Part shown: piece after piece, positions 2,577 to 15,099 of the stretch
How positions within the stretch are numbered: position 1 is the stretch's first letter
Layout of the letters: every line of letters begins with the position of its first letter
Source: Propionibacteriaceae bacterium
Lineage (GTDB): Bacteria > Actinomycetota > Actinomycetes > Propionibacteriales > Propionibacteriaceae
NCBI GenBank assembly: GCA_030537675.1
Contig: JAUNVL010000018.1
Coordinates: forward strand, 1 to 32,889
Direction of reading: 5' to 3'
Length of the DNA: 32,889 nt
Notes under the pieces: generated by a model
The model's input: the letters and a program-made list of their open reading frames with translations, nothing else
Databases searched by the model: none
What the model was told of the DNA's origin: nothing
Made by a program: the position numbers and the translations under genes

Positions 2577-3182
2577 TCAGGACGTGGGGGCCAGATCCCA
2601 GTTGGCGAGCGAGGTGAAATCGAACGTCCCCCGCTCGGGGCGAACCGTTACTGACACCAGATGGAGCCGGGACACATGGACCGTGCCGAGAGGTGTCACG
2701 TCGGCCACCCGGGACTCGACGAGATCATGCGGGACGGCGCCCTTGGCGTAGGCGAGGCTCAGGTGCGGGGACGCGGGGGGCGCGGGTGGGGCCACGCCCC
2801 ACGTGTCGGTGACGACGTCACGGCAGCCGCTCACCAACGCGTCCCAAGCGGGGGAGTCGGCAGCCCAGCACGCGACGGCGACGTCGTCGGCCTGCGGGGA
2901 CCTGAACTGCAGATCGAAGGCAGGCATTCCGGAGCAGAAGGCCTCCAGCGCTTCCCCGAGGCGGGTGTACTGGCTCTGGGACACCTCGTCGTCGAACTGC
3001 GCAAGGCGCTGCACAGTGCAGTGCAGGTACGCCTCCGGCATCAGGGGCAAGTGCTCAATATCTGTGAGGGTGCTCTGGGCAGCGGTGAAGCGTTCCGTCT
3101 CGTCCTCACCCGGCAGCACGTACAGGTGCAGCGAGCCCTCCGGCTTGCGCCACGGTTCCATGCGTGCAAAGAAGCTCTCCAT
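2577..3182 (-). CDS. 2'-5' RNA ligase / 2H phosphoesterase family protein
   Basis: 201 residues. The protein carries two H-x-T/S motifs, HCTV (near residue 64) and PHLSLAY (near residue 150), the paired catalytic signatures of 2H phosphoesterases. The family cleaves or seals 2',5'- and cyclic phosphodiesters in RNA or nucleotides; the substrate here is unknown. The start MESFFARMEPW at 3182 has a purine-rich GAAAGAGAGA upstream. An in-frame longer reading to 3254 has no better ribosome site and would run into the control region of the divergent protease gene. Confidence 0.75.
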   Translation of the reverse strand: MESFFARMEPWRKPEGSLHLYVLPGEDETERFTAAQSTLTDIEHLPLMPEAYLHCTVQRLAQFDDEVSQSQYTRLGEALEAFCSGMPAFDLQFRSPQADDVAVACWAADSPAWDALVSGCRDVVTDTWGVAPPAPPASPHLSLAYAKGAVPHDLVESRVADVTPLGTVHVSRLHLVSVTVRPERGTFDFTSLANWDLAPTS

Positions 3183-9381: not shown

Positions 9382-11061
<1,680 letters not shown>

Positions 11062-11076
11062 CGCTTTCCCACATCG

Positions 11077-11114
11077 ACGGCCCGGTCACCCCAGCGATGG
11101 GGCGGCCGGGCCGT
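11077..11114 (+). terminator. Hairpin terminator behind ettA
   Basis: ACGGCCCGG (11077-11085) pairs with CCGGGCCGT (11106-11114), and an inner CCCC-agcgat-GGGG stem lies in the loop. It starts 15 bases after the ettA stop. There is no T-tract. Confidence 0.6.
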
Positions 11115-11125
11115 TGCCGTGCCTC

Positions 11126-11204
11126 GTGACGGATAAGTGCTGTCAGATTCGACATCCGCCCCGAAAGGCCCCGATTTTGGGATCTGGGATGACTTCTACG
11201 TCAC
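11126..11204. repeat. 79-bp element, copy 1 (GTGACGGATAAGT ends)
   Basis: It begins GTGACGGATAAGTGCTG (11126-11142) and ends ACTTCTACGTCAC (11192-11204), which matches the inverse of the start at 11 of 13 positions. It has exactly the length of copy 2 (12118-12196) and aligns with it without gaps at both ends and at an internal CGATTyTGGGATsT block. Its right end contains the stop codon of the AbiEi/DUF559 gene. It could be a duplicated binding site, a REP-like or MITE-like repeat, or a transcript-end hairpin. Confidence 0.6.
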
Positions 11205-12052
11205 GATGAGCGACGCCTCGTCGTCAGGTGTTGGCGGAGTTGCGGCACCAGTTCTTCCATCGAGTCGGCCGTGAAGCGCAGCACGGTCCAACCCTTGAGG
11301 TGCAGGGCCACGTCACGACGCCGGTCAGCCACGAAGCTCGTTCGGGCCTGGTGGAACTCCCACCCGTCGAGTTCCACCACCACCTTCTCCGCCGGGAAGG
11401 CAATGTCCGCGTAGACCCATCCCCAGGGGACCCGGATCTGGAGGTTCGTCCGCCAGCCCCTGATCCCAGCAGTTCGAAGCATGGTGTGTGCCCTGCGTTC
11501 CAGCGCGGACCACGGTTCGTCCCGGGATTCATGGATCAGTTGTGCAATCTGCGGGTTGTCGGCGCGGCCGGGCATGAGTCTGAGTGCCCATAGCATCGCT
11601 GCGACGCTGGTCGCGCGTCGGCGCAGTGCTTCGTCGATGGCATCGGCGCCCAGGATCCGGACCAGATCGACGGTGCTTGCAGCTGGATGCTGGATCCTCA
11701 ACGACCCCACATCCATGACCAGATCCGCATCAAGGGGCGTCTGGGACAGCTGGGCGCCGGCTACCTTCCTCCGAGGGCATCGGTGGGTCAGGGCGTGGAC
11801 GGCGTCGAACCGGATGTCGGGCCACCACGTCAGCCGGGCGGCGGTCCCGGACGCGAACACCGCGTGGGGATCCCAGTCCGCCACGGACAGGACGAGGGAC
11901 TCGAAGGTGTTCTCCGGCGCGTACGTACCGGGCATCAGCGGTACGAGGGTGCCCTTCTTGACCGCAGCATCGATGCGGCCGATGAGGGTGGGGTGCCGGC
12001 GGCGGCTGAGCACACCGTGCTGGTGGAATTCCGTCGCGAGAATCTGGTGCAT
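11201..12052 (-). CDS. AbiEi-type regulator domain fused to DUF559/Vsr-like nuclease domain
   Basis: 283 residues. The N-terminal 40 residues (LATEFHQHGVLSRRRHPTLIGRIDAAVKKG) form the winged-helix start of AbiEi antitoxin-like proteins, followed by the AbiEi middle domain (SVADWDPHAVFASGTAARLTWW region). The C-terminal 100 residues are a DUF559 fold of the very-short-patch-repair endonuclease group: ADIAFPAEKVVVELDG with D and E in the catalytic positions, FVADRRRD, GWTVLRFT. AbiEi regulates AbiE type IV toxin-antitoxin systems by binding inverted repeats at its promoter. No AbiEii nucleotidyltransferase toxin is adjacent, so this is an orphan; its role is unknown. The ATG at 12052 has no clear ribosome binding site. 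Flanked on both sides by the GTGACGGATAAGT elements. Confidence 0.78.
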   Translation of the reverse strand: MHQILATEFHQHGVLSRRRHPTLIGRIDAAVKKGTLVPLMPGTYAPENTFESLVLSVADWDPHAVFASGTAARLTWWPDIRFDAVHALTHRCPRRKVAGAQLSQTPLDADLVMDVGSLRIQHPAASTVDLVRILGADAIDEALRRRATSVAAMLWALRLMPGRADNPQIAQLIHESRDEPWSALERRAHTMLRTAGIRGWRTNLQIRVPWGWVYADIAFPAEKVVVELDGWEFHQARTSFVADRRRDVALHLKGWTVLRFTADSMEELVPQLRQHLTTRRRSS

Positions 12053-12117
12053 GTTCTGGACTGTGGGCGCACAGCGGGCAAGGGCACAGTATTCGGCAGA
12101 GTCTGTGGACAACCATC

Positions 12118-12196
12118 GTGACGGATAAGTGCTGCTGGAACGGTCACAGCGGTGGTGGGCGAGCGATTCTGGGATGTGACAGTACTTATCCGTCAC
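12118..12196. repeat. 79-bp element, copy 2 (perfect 13-bp terminal inverted repeats)
   Basis: GTGACGGATAAGT (12118-12130) and its exact inverse ACTTATCCGTCAC (12184-12196) bound 53 bases. A second nested pair, GTCACA (12143-12148) and TGTGAC (12175-12180), sits inside. It lies 65 bases upstream of the AbiEi/DUF559 start and about 45 bases behind the end of the D-LDH gene. It may act as an operator for the AbiEi-like gene, as a terminator hairpin for the D-LDH transcript, or be a dispersed repeat. Confidence 0.65.
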
Positions 12197-12219
12197 ACCG
12201 GACTTATCCGTCACACCGG
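12184..12219 (+). repeat. Perfect 18-bp tandem duplication ACTTATCCGTCACACCGG
   Basis: ACTTATCCGTCACACCGG occurs twice head to tail (12184-12201 and 12202-12219). The first copy contains the right arm of the 79-bp element. A third, partial trace (GCGTCACCC) follows at 12220-12228. Confidence 0.9.
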
Positions 12220-12240
12220 GCGTCACCCAAGTTCTATGCC

Positions 12241-15099
12241 TCAGTGGGTGGCGAGCAGTTCCGCGAGCGACATCGAATCCCGGTCCGCGAGCGACGTGAG
12301 CTGGGTCTGGCAGGAGAACCCGTCGGCCAGGACAATGGCGTCCGCACCCGCCTCTTGGATGGCAGGCAGCAGGTCGTGTTCGAAGACGGCCACCGATACC
12401 TCGTGGTGGCCGATCTCGACGCCGAAGTTGCCGGCCAGACCACAGCAGCCGCCGACGCGCACGACGTCGGCACCCGTGGCTGCCAGCAGCGCAGCGTCCA
12501 CCTGCCAACCGATGACGGAGGCGTGGTGGCAGTGGGGCTGCGCGACGATCGTGTGACCGCTGAGGTCGGGGGCCACGAAGTCGGCGTCCCGCGACAGGAA
12601 CTCCGCCAGGGTCAGCACAGTGCCGTTGAGCGCCGCGACGTTGGGGTCCTCCGGCAGCAGCTCGGGGGCATCGCTGCGCCAGACGGCCGTGCACGACGGC
12701 TCGAGCCCGACGATGGGGATCCCCGCAGCCACCACCGGCGCCAGTTCAGCGGCGGCCTTGCGCAGTTGGCGCTTGGCGCCATCGAGCTGTCCCGTCGAGA
12801 TCCACGTCAGGCCGCAACAGGCCGTGCGCTCCAGCACCTGGGGTTCCCAGCCCAGCCTCACGAGCACCTGAACGGTGGCGGCGAAGGTGGTGGATTCGAA
12901 GCAGTCAGAGAACGAGTCCACCCAGATCAACACCGGGCCCTTGGACGGGGCGGAGGCAGCCGCGCTCACCATGTCGGGGATCGGGGCTACGGACCCACTG
13001 GCGGCGAGTTCCTTCGTGGCCGCCTCCGTGAGTGCACCCAGCTGGCCCCGGGCATTGGTCCGGGCGAAACGGGGGATGTCGCGCCTGGCGTCGACGCCAG
13101 CGCCCCAGCGCAGCAGCCGACCCAGGCCGGGCGCCTGCCCCACCACGTTGACGAGTGACCCCATCCCGGGAATGGTCGTGATCATCCGGCCCCAGCGGGG
13201 GAGCCATCCGAGCGCGTAGTGGTTGCGGGGACGCAGCCGGCCCTTCCAGGTCTCGTGGGTGACGCGCGCCTTGTAAGCGGCCATGTCGATGCCGGTGGGG
13301 CAGTCGCGGGCACAGCCCTTGCAGGACAGGCAGAGGTCGAGGGCCTCGTGCACCTCAGGGCTGCGCCATCCGCCGATGAGGGTGCCGTTGACCATTTCCT
13401 GCAGCACGCGGGAGCGGCCGCGGGTGGAGTCCTTCTCATTGCGCGTCGCCTGGAAGCTGGGGCACATCACGCCACCTGAGGGAGCATTGTCGGCAATGCA
13501 CTTGCCCACCCCGCTGCACTTGTGGACTTCCTTCACGAAGTGGGGATGCGTCAGGTTCAGCGGCGACGACGTCATCGCCACCACCCGGACGTCCGCGTCC
13601 ACGGGTGCCGGATCGACGAGCACGCCGGGATTCAGCAGGTTCTGGGGGTCGAAGACGTTTTTGACGGCGCCGAAGAGGTCCAGCGCCTCGGGGGTGTACA
13701 TGTACTGCAGGAGTTCGGAGCGCGCCCGGCCGTCGCCGTGCTCGCCGGACATGGAGCCGCCGTGGCGCGCCACGAGTTGGGCAGCCTCCACGACGAACGC
13801 GCGGTACTTCGCGGCGCCGCCCTCGCTGGTCAGTGGGAAGTCGATGCGGGCATGGACGCAGCCGTCGCCGAAGTGTCCGTAGGGGAGCGCGTGCAGGCCG
13901 TGCTCCTCGAGCAGTGCGTCGAAGTCGCGGAGGTAGTCACCCAGATGTGCCGGGGGCACGGCCGCATCCTCCCAGCCGGGGTAGGCCGGATCAGCCAGGC
14001 TCACGCCGGCGAGGCCCGCGCCGTCGGCGCGCACCTGCCACAGCGCGGCGGCGTGCGCAGCATCTTCGACCACCCAGCCCTCGACGGTGTCGGCTGCGGC
14101 GAGCAGCGCATCGGCGCGACCCCTGACCTCGGCCGGGTCGTCGCCGACGAGTTCGATGAACATCCAGCCATCGCCCGCCGGGAGCTTCCCGACGGCGTCG
14201 GCCCCACGCTTGGCGATGACCACGTCGACGATCCGACGGTCAAGTCCCTCGCAGGCCGTGGGCCTGAACGGCAGCAGCCGGGAGATGTCGTCGCCCGCAT
14301 CGGCCATGGTGGTGTAGCCGAGCGCCACCATCACGCGTTCCGGGGCATCGTGGACGAGTTGGACCGTCGCGGACAGGATGATGCCGAGCGTGCCCTCGGT
14401 GCCGGCGAAGAACTTCGGCAGGTCGAAGCCCTTCTCCGGGAGCAGGTGCTCCAGGGAGTACCCCGAGACCTGGCGGCCAAAGCGGCCGAACTGTGTGCGG
14501 ATGATGCCCAGGTTGCCGGCGACGAGGTCACGGAGCGCTGGCATGTCGTCGGCGCCCAGATGGAGAATCTCCCCCGTGCCGGTGATCACCTCGAGCGCCA
14601 CCACGTTGTCCGACATCCGCCCATAGCCGAGCGCACGGGGGCCGCAGGCGTTGTTGCCGATCATGCCGCCGACGGTGCAGCGGTTGGAGGTGGAAGGGTC
14701 CGGGCCGAGCCGCAGTCCATGCGGTCTCGCCGCCTGCTGCAATGACTCCTGCACCACACCGGGATCCACGACGGCCGTTCGCGTCACCGGATCGACGGAG
14801 TGGATCGCGGTGAGATGACGCGAGACGTCGATGACGAGGCCCGGTCCCACGGCGTTGCCGGCGCAGGAAGTGCCTGCACCACGAGCCGTGATGGGCATCC
14901 CGACGGCCAGCGCGGCACGCACCAGGGCGACGAGTTCCTCCCGTGTCCGGGGGTGCGCCACGACAGCCGGTGGGATGCGGTAGATCGAGGCGTCGCTGGA
15001 GTACATCGCCCGTACGAGGTTGGAATCGTCGAGGACGTCCGCGGTTGATCCCAGCTCGACGCGAAGTTGGTGCAGGAGGTCAGTGGGCGCAGCGGACAT
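12241..15099 (-). CDS. FAD- and Fe-S-containing D-lactate (D-2-hydroxyacid) dehydrogenase
   Basis: 952 residues; a fusion of a GlcD/Dld-type flavoprotein and a GlpC/LutA-type Fe-S/CCG protein. Residues 40-180 are the FAD-binding PCMH domain (GAGTSCAGNAVG at 74-85, GGMIGNNACGPRALGYG near 143), about 210-500 the FAD-oxidase C domain, about 524-605 a ferredoxin-like part (CSGVGKCIADN...CPS, then CLSCKGCARDCPTG), and two CCG motifs follow (CCGLTW near 758, GGCCGLAG near 880). Such enzymes oxidise D-lactate or glycolate-like acids to the keto acid and pass electrons to the membrane quinone pool. The substrate is inferred from family and context. The start at 15099 is four bases behind the marR stop, so the two form an operon. 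A reading extended to 15240 overlaps marR and was rejected. Confidence 0.85.
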   Translation of the reverse strand: MSAAPTDLLHQLRVELGSTADVLDDSNLVRAMYSSDASIYRIPPAVVAHPRTREELVALVRAALAVGMPITARGAGTSCAGNAVGPGLVIDVSRHLTAIHSVDPVTRTAVVDPGVVQESLQQAARPHGLRLGPDPSTSNRCTVGGMIGNNACGPRALGYGRMSDNVVALEVITGTGEILHLGADDMPALRDLVAGNLGIIRTQFGRFGRQVSGYSLEHLLPEKGFDLPKFFAGTEGTLGIILSATVQLVHDAPERVMVALGYTTMADAGDDISRLLPFRPTACEGLDRRIVDVVIAKRGADAVGKLPAGDGWMFIELVGDDPAEVRGRADALLAAADTVEGWVVEDAAHAAALWQVRADGAGLAGVSLADPAYPGWEDAAVPPAHLGDYLRDFDALLEEHGLHALPYGHFGDGCVHARIDFPLTSEGGAAKYRAFVVEAAQLVARHGGSMSGEHGDGRARSELLQYMYTPEALDLFGAVKNVFDPQNLLNPGVLVDPAPVDADVRVVAMTSSPLNLTHPHFVKEVHKCSGVGKCIADNAPSGGVMCPSFQATRNEKDSTRGRSRVLQEMVNGTLIGGWRSPEVHEALDLCLSCKGCARDCPTGIDMAAYKARVTHETWKGRLRPRNHYALGWLPRWGRMITTIPGMGSLVNVVGQAPGLGRLLRWGAGVDARRDIPRFARTNARGQLGALTEAATKELAASGSVAPIPDMVSAAASAPSKGPVLIWVDSFSDCFESTTFAATVQVLVRLGWEPQVLERTACCGLTWISTGQLDGAKRQLRKAAAELAPVVAAGIPIVGLEPSCTAVWRSDAPELLPEDPNVAALNGTVLTLAEFLSRDADFVAPDLSGHTIVAQPHCHHASVIGWQVDAALLAATGADVVRVGGCCGLAGNFGVEIGHHEVSVAVFEHDLLPAIQEAGADAIVLADGFSCQTQLTSLADRDSMSLAELLATH

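What the first reader, a model, noticed from the sequence alone, without database searches (positions are those of the whole stretch)
11126..12219. Two 79-bp elements with identical ends bracket an orphan AbiEi/DUF559 gene
Copy 1 (11126-11204) and copy 2 (12118-12196) are the same length to the base. They share the first 17 bases, the last four, most of the right arm and an internal CGATTyTGGGATsT block, while the rest has diverged. In copy 2 the 13-base ends are perfect inverted repeats. One copy sits at the gene's 5' side and the other contains its stop codon. The arrangement suggests either a mobile or repeat-bounded cassette, or paired operator sites for the AbiEi-like DNA-binding domain. 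The AbiE precedent (AbiEi binding inverted repeats at its promoter) is known; sites at both ends are not something I know of.
Basis: partly seen in the sequence, partly recalled or inferred. Interest (0 to 1): 0.75.

Follow-up and report, generated by a model that had tools for sequence, protein, structure and literature searches.

The report
Nuclease genes bracketed by dispersed palindromes
The two 79-base palindromes around this nuclease gene belong to a recurring pattern in actinomycete bacteria, in which such nucleases are bracketed by a palindrome of their own that, in several genomes, is also scattered in a dozen or more further copies, as if the nuclease spreads or maintains it.

Summary
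Copy 1 (11126-11204) and copy 2 (12118-12196) are both 79 bp, share their ends and bracket a 283-aa DUF559 nuclease gene (11201-12052, minus strand); all four exact 13-mers in the held genome lie here. It is one case of a pattern. Of 84 homologous genes, 61 have a long inverted repeat alongside, against 2 of 84 in control windows, and 36 have matching repeats on both sides, against 0 of 84. The repeat differs from nuclease to nuclease, and several genomes hold further copies: one genome has 24 complete copies for one nuclease and 26 for another, bracketing pairs included; the 38 other genus genomes have 0-2 stray hits. A group in another family behaves alike. Where examined, arms are near-invariant, the middle variable, length almost fixed. 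This is the architecture of REPIN palindromes and RAYT transposases, but the enzyme is an unrelated Vsr/DUF559-fold nuclease; no Y1 transposase was found in 39 of 39 genomes. Best reading: a RAYT-like system in which the nuclease spreads or maintains its palindromes. The association is shown; cutting and mobility are inferred.

The parts
11126..11204 (-). Downstream palindromic element (copy 1), 79 bp, on the gene strand GTGAC...GTCAC; contains the stop codon of the nuclease gene
   Evidence: (model E=2.7e-10; it is a training sequence)
11201..12052 (-). Nuclease gene, 283 aa (P0001): weakly AbiEi-like N-terminal region plus a C-terminal DUF559/Vsr-fold nuclease domain
11255..11506 (-). DUF559 domain (aa 183-266). 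Invariant columns in it over 40 homologues: E185, H189, N203, D216, E227, D229, H234, D243, W255
   Evidence: for the extent, for the invariants
12118..12196 (-). Upstream palindromic element (copy 2), 79 bp, perfect 13-bp terminal inverted repeats (17 bp with one mismatch), 65 bp upstream of the ATG
   Evidence: (training sequence)
12202..12214 (-). Extra arm (half element), second unit of an 18-bp tandem duplication of the outer end of copy 2
11070..11121 (.). G+C-rich inverted repeat between the ABC-F gene and copy 1 (terminator-like stem without a T run)
   Evidence: pair I2; one search finds no terminator-like site

Best explanation
The locus is one unit of a REPIN/RAYT-like system built on a different enzyme. 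A DUF559 (Vsr/PD-(D/E)XK-fold) nuclease gene is bracketed by two copies of the palindrome that it recognises. Its N-terminal region, possibly AbiEi-like, reads the near-invariant outer arms. The catalytic domain then nicks the palindrome or its extruded hairpin. The broken or single-stranded hairpin is copied into new intergenic sites, mostly near gene ends, by host repair or replication. Palindromes without the gene are the non-autonomous copies. Shown: gene-specific paired palindromes; dispersed cognate copies in genomes that carry the cognate nuclease; near-fixed length with near-invariant arms and a variable, still symmetric middle; arms that track protein relatedness; at one site, absence of the element in other species; no Y1 (RAYT-type) transposase found in the genus. 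Inferred: protein-palindrome binding, nicking, the catalytic role of the invariant residues, and that the nuclease causes the dispersal.
For: (1) 61 of 84 homologues have an adjacent inverted repeat with arms of 13 bp or more, against 2 of 84 in outer windows; 36 of 84 have matching up and down flanks, against 0 of 84 outer windows and at most 1% of swapped pairs. (2) In genome G001 nuclease 1's palindrome occurs as 24 complete copies and nuclease 2's as 26, the bracketing pairs included; the other 38 genus genomes have 0-2 hits, about as the reversed controls (0-1). (3) GTTGAGCAAATGGCA with up to 2 mismatches gives 18-37 hits in 5 of 39 genomes (reversed control 0-2 there) and 0-6 in the other 34 (control 0-12); all five carry a nuclease with this or a related palindrome beside it (G022 the related GAGCAATTGG type; most G018 and all G022 hit sequences were not listed). 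(4) In another family a different palindrome gives 29-41 hits in 6 of 14 genomes and 0-3 in 8 (14 of the 19 genomes of that family with a homologue); it brackets the nuclease in 5 of the 6, the sixth not checked. (5) G001 family 1: arms 96% and middle 59% identical (190 pairs of the 20 copies of 81 bp; 4 more are 80 bp); family 2: 26 of 26 pairs at one spacing; middle more symmetric than shuffles, 0 of 1000. (6) Mantel test of arms against protein, r=0.18, 0 of 2000 permutations, 58 loci. (7) E185, D216, E227, D229, H234, D243 invariant in 40 homologues. (8) Orthologous solo copies in two species: arms 160/167, middle 131/162, 60-bp flanks 337/436 identical (4 loci). (9) No Y1_Tnp in 39 of 39 genomes; the control rings in 5 of 14.
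Against: No biochemical evidence. A PD-(D/E)XK nuclease has no strand-transfer chemistry known to me, so host repair must be invoked. No target-site duplication was seen by eye. Five of 5 solo copies of G030 tested (of 12) are at the same place in G018 (4 by sequence, 1 by gap size), so movement is slow or has ceased there. 23 of 84 homologues show no adjacent palindrome at this threshold, and 48 of 84 show no matching pair. G011 has about 11 copies of the window's type, but its two homologues have other palindromes. Dispersed copies in the window's own genome are few (6) and diverged. Pair covariation in the first 10 copies does not beat shuffles. The Mantel effect is small and lies mostly in pairs above 50% protein identity.
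Confidence: 0.62

Rival explanations
1. The palindromes are functional host sites (chromosome organisation, mRNA ends or gene regulation) that the protein binds; the nuclease fold is used rarely or for structure-specific repair, and the copies are kept by selection rather than spread as mobile DNA.
For: Solo arms are conserved between two species while the middle and near flanks diverge; length is nearly fixed; 5 of 5 tested copies are at the same place in both species.
Against: At one site 10 of 10 aligned genomes of the genus lack the element (not all genomes were aligned, and G019 and G022 have a longer, unread gap there). The G001 palindromes are nearly private to the genome that holds the cognate nuclease. 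Positions favour gene ends, with divergent promoter regions rare (3 of 43 classified). Similar constraints are described for REPINs themselves (PMC3116915, passages).
Confidence: 0.2
2. The palindromes spread by another route and the nuclease gene is a homing-type passenger that cuts and inserts into them, leaving one palindrome on each side.
For: The two palindromes around G001 nuclease 1 are identical to each other while the middles of copies differ; a solved relative is named 'Mobile intron protein' (3r3p, E=0.0014).
Against: Each nuclease has its own palindrome even within one genome and the arms track protein relatedness; no Y1 transposase was found as another candidate (other transposase types were not searched).
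Confidence: 0.12
3. AbiE-like regulation: an orphan AbiEi-type DNA-binding protein with two operator copies, no mobility.
For: Weak AbiEi resemblance of residues 45-146; copy 2 lies 65 bp upstream of the start codon.
Against: No toxin partner among five neighbouring ORFs; invariant nuclease residues; the second element lies over the stop codon; in G001 22 and 24 copies lie away from the gene.
Confidence: 0.04
4. A chance pair, or an ordinary insertion sequence or composite transposon remnant.
For: Terminal inverted repeats at both ends of a gene.
Against: No transposase domain in the bracketed protein; the same architecture around other homologues with different repeats; no target-site duplication seen; on plasmids only partial DUF559 matches (10 records) and on phages none.
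Confidence: 0.02

Closest known systems
REP-associated tyrosine transposases (RAYTs) with REP/REPIN palindromes
   Same: Gene bracketed by two palindromes; correlation between a given enzyme and abundance of its cognate palindrome; co-variation of enzyme and palindrome; REPIN anatomy of invariant ends, less conserved spacer of set length, hairpin potential (PMC2817692 abstract; PMC3116915 passages).
   Different: The enzyme is a DUF559/Vsr-fold nuclease, not a Y1 HUH transposase; complete copies counted here are 24 and 26 (G001) and 14 (G030, from the hits), not over 100; bracketing is frequent, not universal; found here in actinomycetes.
Vsr / DUF559 / MTES_1575-type nucleases
   Same: Same nuclease domain.
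   Different: Vsr is a mismatch-repair nickase (recalled). MTES_1575_REase was described as a Vsr-fold domain in giant multidomain proteins (PMC3710099, passages). Bracketing palindromes are not mentioned in the passages seen.
AbiE type IV toxin-antitoxin (AbiEi)
   Same: Possible distant resemblance of the N-terminal region and inverted repeats upstream (AbiEi operators recalled).
   Different: No AbiEii toxin among five neighbouring ORFs; nuclease domain; palindromes on both sides, and dispersed.
Free-standing homing endonucleases of the Vsr-like fold (I-Bth0305I type, recalled)
   Same: Related nuclease fold (3r3p 'Mobile intron protein', E=0.0014).
   Different: The bracketing DNA is a palindrome that in some genomes is present in many copies; no intron or intein was looked for.

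Membership tests
REPIN-RAYT | Y1 HUH tyrosine transposase | tested here: not met
   The enzyme is DUF559; Y1_Tnp PF01797 in 0 of 39 genus genomes, control found in 5 of 14
REPIN-RAYT | Enzyme gene bracketed by two cognate palindromes | tested here: met
   36 of 84 with matching flanks vs 0 of 84 outer windows; 15 of 27 vs 1 of 27 in the class-wide sample. Not universal, whereas the RAYT abstract says always
REPIN-RAYT | Cognate palindromes abundant where the enzyme is present | tested here: met
   exception: G011 has the window's type without a nuclease flanked by it
REPIN-RAYT | Invariant ends, variable set-length spacer, hairpin potential | tested here: met
REPIN-RAYT | Co-evolution of enzyme and palindrome | tested here: met
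   Mantel r=0.18, 0 of 2000; same-locus comparison. Small effect
REPIN-RAYT | High copy number (over 100 per genome usual for REPs) | tested here: not met
   24 and 26 complete copies in G001
REPIN-RAYT | Enzyme binds and cleaves the palindrome | not testable with these tools
   needs purified protein
AbiE type IV toxin-antitoxin | AbiEii nucleotidyltransferase toxin next to AbiEi | tested here: not met
   Five neighbouring ORFs: ABC-F, FAD/Fe-S oxidoreductase, MarR, GTPase, DctP. The AAA_21 hit ('putative AbiEii toxin') on the ABC-F protein overlaps its ATPase domain
AbiE type IV toxin-antitoxin | AbiEi domain | tested here: inconclusive
   PADLOC AbiEi E=0.013; Pfam AbiEi_1 and AbiEi_4 in 1 of 40 members each
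DUF559 / Vsr-fold nuclease | Domain match and conserved acidic residues | tested here: met
   PF04480 35.3 bits vs cut-off 20.6; 38 of 40 homologues match; D216, E227, D229, H234, D243 invariant; 3hrl E=1.2e-6. No structure could be predicted
Insertion sequence / composite transposon | Transposase and target-site duplication | tested here: not met
   No transposase domain in P0001; no duplication seen by eye at 24 copies in G001

The most novel reading that the evidence does not exclude
Actinomycetes carry a large, undescribed class of mobile palindromes ('nuclease-associated palindromes') driven by a Vsr/DUF559-fold hydrolytic nuclease instead of a transposase. Each nuclease lineage has its own palindrome of roughly 40-110 bp; enzyme and palindrome change together; and the elements multiply through host repair of nicked hairpins. 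It would be a convergent counterpart of REPIN/RAYT with a different chemistry.
Probability: 0.55. Interest if true: 0.92.

Novelty: new variant of a known kind. Interest (0 to 1): 0.85.

Why it matters
Pfam calls DUF559 'unknown function'. If true, this gives a whole subfamily a specific, testable substrate for each member. It would explain families of dispersed intergenic palindromes in actinomycete genomes, and it suggests that the REPIN/RAYT way of life arose a second time with an enzyme that only hydrolyses DNA. How short palindromes spread in bacterial genomes, and why they persist, becomes testable with an independent system. Two nucleases with different palindromes in one genome are natural specificity controls.

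Tried and rejected
Searching relatives for the window's own motif: it is not next to other DUF559 genes. That looked like a refutation until each gene's own flanks were searched for any inverted repeat. RNA-structure reading: pair covariation in the first alignment of 10 copies does not beat shuffles, and Rfam has no match at the palindromes (two tRNAs elsewhere in L097). Sigma-70 promoter and terminator scans of 11000-12350: none. Plasmid or phage carriage: partial DUF559 hits on 10 plasmids, none on phages. Integron attC cassette: thought of, not tested. First flank test on 42 loci gave 18 above the 99% level, superseded. Print search: ten full-text searches of the open PMC library (one search listed 20 of 22 and 12 of 15 papers) show in titles and abstract starts nothing that links DUF559 or AbiEi-like nucleases to bracketing or dispersed palindromes; the 14 papers naming DUF559, including the one with 'repeat' and 'flank' (PMC12907096), were not opened; subscription papers and preprints were not covered. 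Papers: PMC2817692 outline and abstract; PMC3116915 and PMC3710099 passages; PMC3733652 one passage; all others search listing only. Rows dropped: one search used 84 of 91 unique loci (from 116; 7 with short flanks or under 250 aa); one search used 58 of the 61 with a palindrome (length 50-116 bp) and left out pairs of 70% identity or more; one search used 27 of 28, 26 of them outside the family; one search used 5 of 12 solo copies; the empty-site count covers 10 of 11 aligned rows (L267, a different locus, left out), judged by eye; one search took 14 of 19 genomes. In one search the Fisher test for one search counted 6 genomes with the bracketed nuclease, but only 5 were verified (G352, whose homologue has an in-frame stop, was not checked); with 5 against 8 the value by hand is about 0.0008.

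Full report
Observation. Both elements are present at the stated coordinates and are exactly 79 bp. They share 17 leading bases (19 with two flanking bases) and the last six, and 49 of 79 ungapped positions agree. Copy 2's ends form a 17-bp inverted repeat with one mismatch. The gene between the elements runs 12052 to 11201 on the minus strand. Its C-terminal part is DUF559, related by sequence to nucleases of known structure (3hrl, 3r3p), and acidic residues of the kind expected in such a nuclease are invariant in 40 homologues. The AbiEi resemblance of the N-terminal part is weak.

The 79-bp element is a dispersed family. A 20-mer search found related palindromes in one other genome of the genus, G011. 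A covariance model from 10 copies then found copies in G000 (the two in the window and 6 elsewhere), G011 (11 distinct places), G012 (1) and G024 (3), most of them 76-80 bp long and the shortest 68. The two window copies and eight of the G011 copies trained the model and match by construction. G011's two homologues of the nuclease have other palindromes. A fifth genome, G022, had one weak match of a different sequence.

The general rule. Homologues of the nuclease occur in 51 of 96 genomes searched, own genome included, with up to seven matches per genome. Their flanks do not hold the window motif, but most have an inverted repeat of their own. Among 84 unique loci, 61 have an inverted repeat with arms of at least 13 bp within 300 bp upstream of the start or from 40 bp before to 260 bp after the stop, against 2 of 84 in windows further out (340-640 bp upstream, 300-600 bp downstream). 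The upstream and downstream flanks of the same gene match above the 99th percentile of swapped pairs in 36 of 84, against 0 of 84 for the outer windows. In a class-wide sample of 27 loci, 26 of them outside the family, 15 have matching flanks against 1 of 27 in outer windows, and 16 have an adjacent inverted repeat against 5 of 27.

Cognate copies are dispersed. G001 carries four matches to the nuclease. The palindrome of the one at 543171-543998 is found as 24 complete elements, 20 of 81 bp and 4 of 80 bp. The palindrome of the one at 1856364-1857176 is found as 26 elements, all with the same spacing. Two of each number bracket the gene. In the other 38 genus genomes the first pattern has hits in 3 genomes (1, 2 and 1) and the second in 2 (1 each), much as the reversed controls. 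The GTTGAGCAAATGGCA pattern has 18-37 hits in G003, G018, G021, G022 and G030, where the reversed control has 0-2, and 0-6 in the other 34 genomes, where the control has 0-12; the list was cut, so G022's and most of G018's hits were not seen. These five hold nucleases with palindromes of that or a related type beside them. In another family (f7) the pattern GATTTCGGTGTAGTTNGT has 29-41 hits in 6 of 14 genomes and 0-3 in 8. The 14 are part of the 19 genomes of that family with a homologue, and the pattern was taken from palindromes seen. The palindrome lies directly on both sides of the nuclease in five of the six; the sixth was not checked.

Anatomy. In G001 family 1 the two 21-bp arms are 96% identical between copies while the middle, in the better of two orientations, is 59% identical, yet length hardly varies. 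The middle is more self-complementary than shuffles (0.43 against 0.26, 0 of 1000), and likewise in G030/G018 (0.50 against 0.29, 0 of 1000). In solo copies at the same place in G030 and G018, the arms agree at 160 of 167 positions, the middle at 131 of 162, the 60-bp flanks at 337 of 436 and the outer flanks at 3031 of 3482 (four loci). At one site the element is present in G030, by gap size also in G018, and absent from 10 of 10 other genomes aligned. The surrounding intergenic sequence is too divergent to give a base-exact junction, and G019 and G022, not aligned, have a longer gap there that was not read. In G030/G018 several elements sit between G-rich and C-rich flanks that are partly complementary (by eye). 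With rough ORF calls on 56 elements, 43 could be classified and 3 of these lie between divergent genes; 6 of 56 overlap a predicted ORF.

Co-variation. Arm similarity rises with protein identity (Mantel r=0.18, 0 of 2000 permutations, 58 loci), mainly above 50% identity. The window's locus, between the oxidoreductase and the ABC-F genes, holds a nuclease in three other genomes. Those nucleases are 44-47% identical to P0001, while the neighbours are 74-86% identical. Among the three, nucleases are 65-69%, ABC-F 94-95% and oxidoreductases 73-87% identical, so faster evolution is clear against ABC-F but modest against the oxidoreductase. In all four genomes the upstream and downstream elements have exactly equal length (79/79, 75/75, 76/76, 75/75), start GTGAC, end GTCAC, and the downstream one begins over the stop codon, while the arms inside have become different.

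Mechanism. The closest analogue is REPIN/RAYT (PMC2817692 abstract; PMC3116915 passages). The parallels are bracketing, dispersed copies where the enzyme is, co-variation, and invariant ends with a set-length spacer that can form a hairpin. The defining enzyme is absent: no Y1 transposase in 39 of 39 genus genomes, with the control found in 5 of 14. I therefore do not file it as a RAYT; it works like one. A hydrolytic nuclease that nicks its palindrome, with host repair or replication spreading it, is the most likely mechanism. Binding, cutting and the causal role in dispersal are inferred. Against it: no target duplication seen, slow or no movement between two species, loci without palindromes, and an orphan family in G011.

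Novelty. Ten full-text searches of the open PMC library show nothing describing this link in the titles and abstract starts listed. The architecture is of a known kind; the enzyme class, the host group and, if the mechanism holds, the chemistry appear new.

Noticed in passing
G000:C127:10744-11559 (L091): A second homologue in the window's own genome has an in-frame TGA in the match and a GTTCCGCAACCC-type inverted repeat upstream; it looks like a decayed unit.
   Followed up: no
L045-L056, L061, L064, L067, L068, L070, L072 (G011): G011 carries about 11 palindromes of the window's type but no nuclease flanked by them was found: an orphan family, as if the nuclease was lost.
   Followed up: partly
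L242-L259 (G030, G018): Several dispersed palindromes sit between G-rich and C-rich, partly complementary flanks (by eye), suggesting insertion into terminator-like hairpins.
   Followed up: partly
L099 (Ruaniaceae bacterium KH17): One of the nucleases most similar to the window's in that scan (51%) is in a record named as another family and also has palindromes on both sides; possible horizontal transfer or contamination.
   Followed up: no
L080 (G001:C1:1855564-1857976): G001 nuclease 2 lies beside the same ABC-F gene as in the window (87% identity) but in the other relative orientation, suggesting repeated use of this intergenic site.
   Followed up: no
window 12179-12214: 18-bp tandem duplication (89% alike) of the outer end of copy 2, giving an extra arm upstream.
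   Followed up: no
L174 (G001:C1:543061-544168): The two palindromes around G001 nuclease 1 are identical over 81 bp although the middles of copies in this family differ; like long terminal repeats, this hints at recent joint copying or gene conversion.
   Followed up: no
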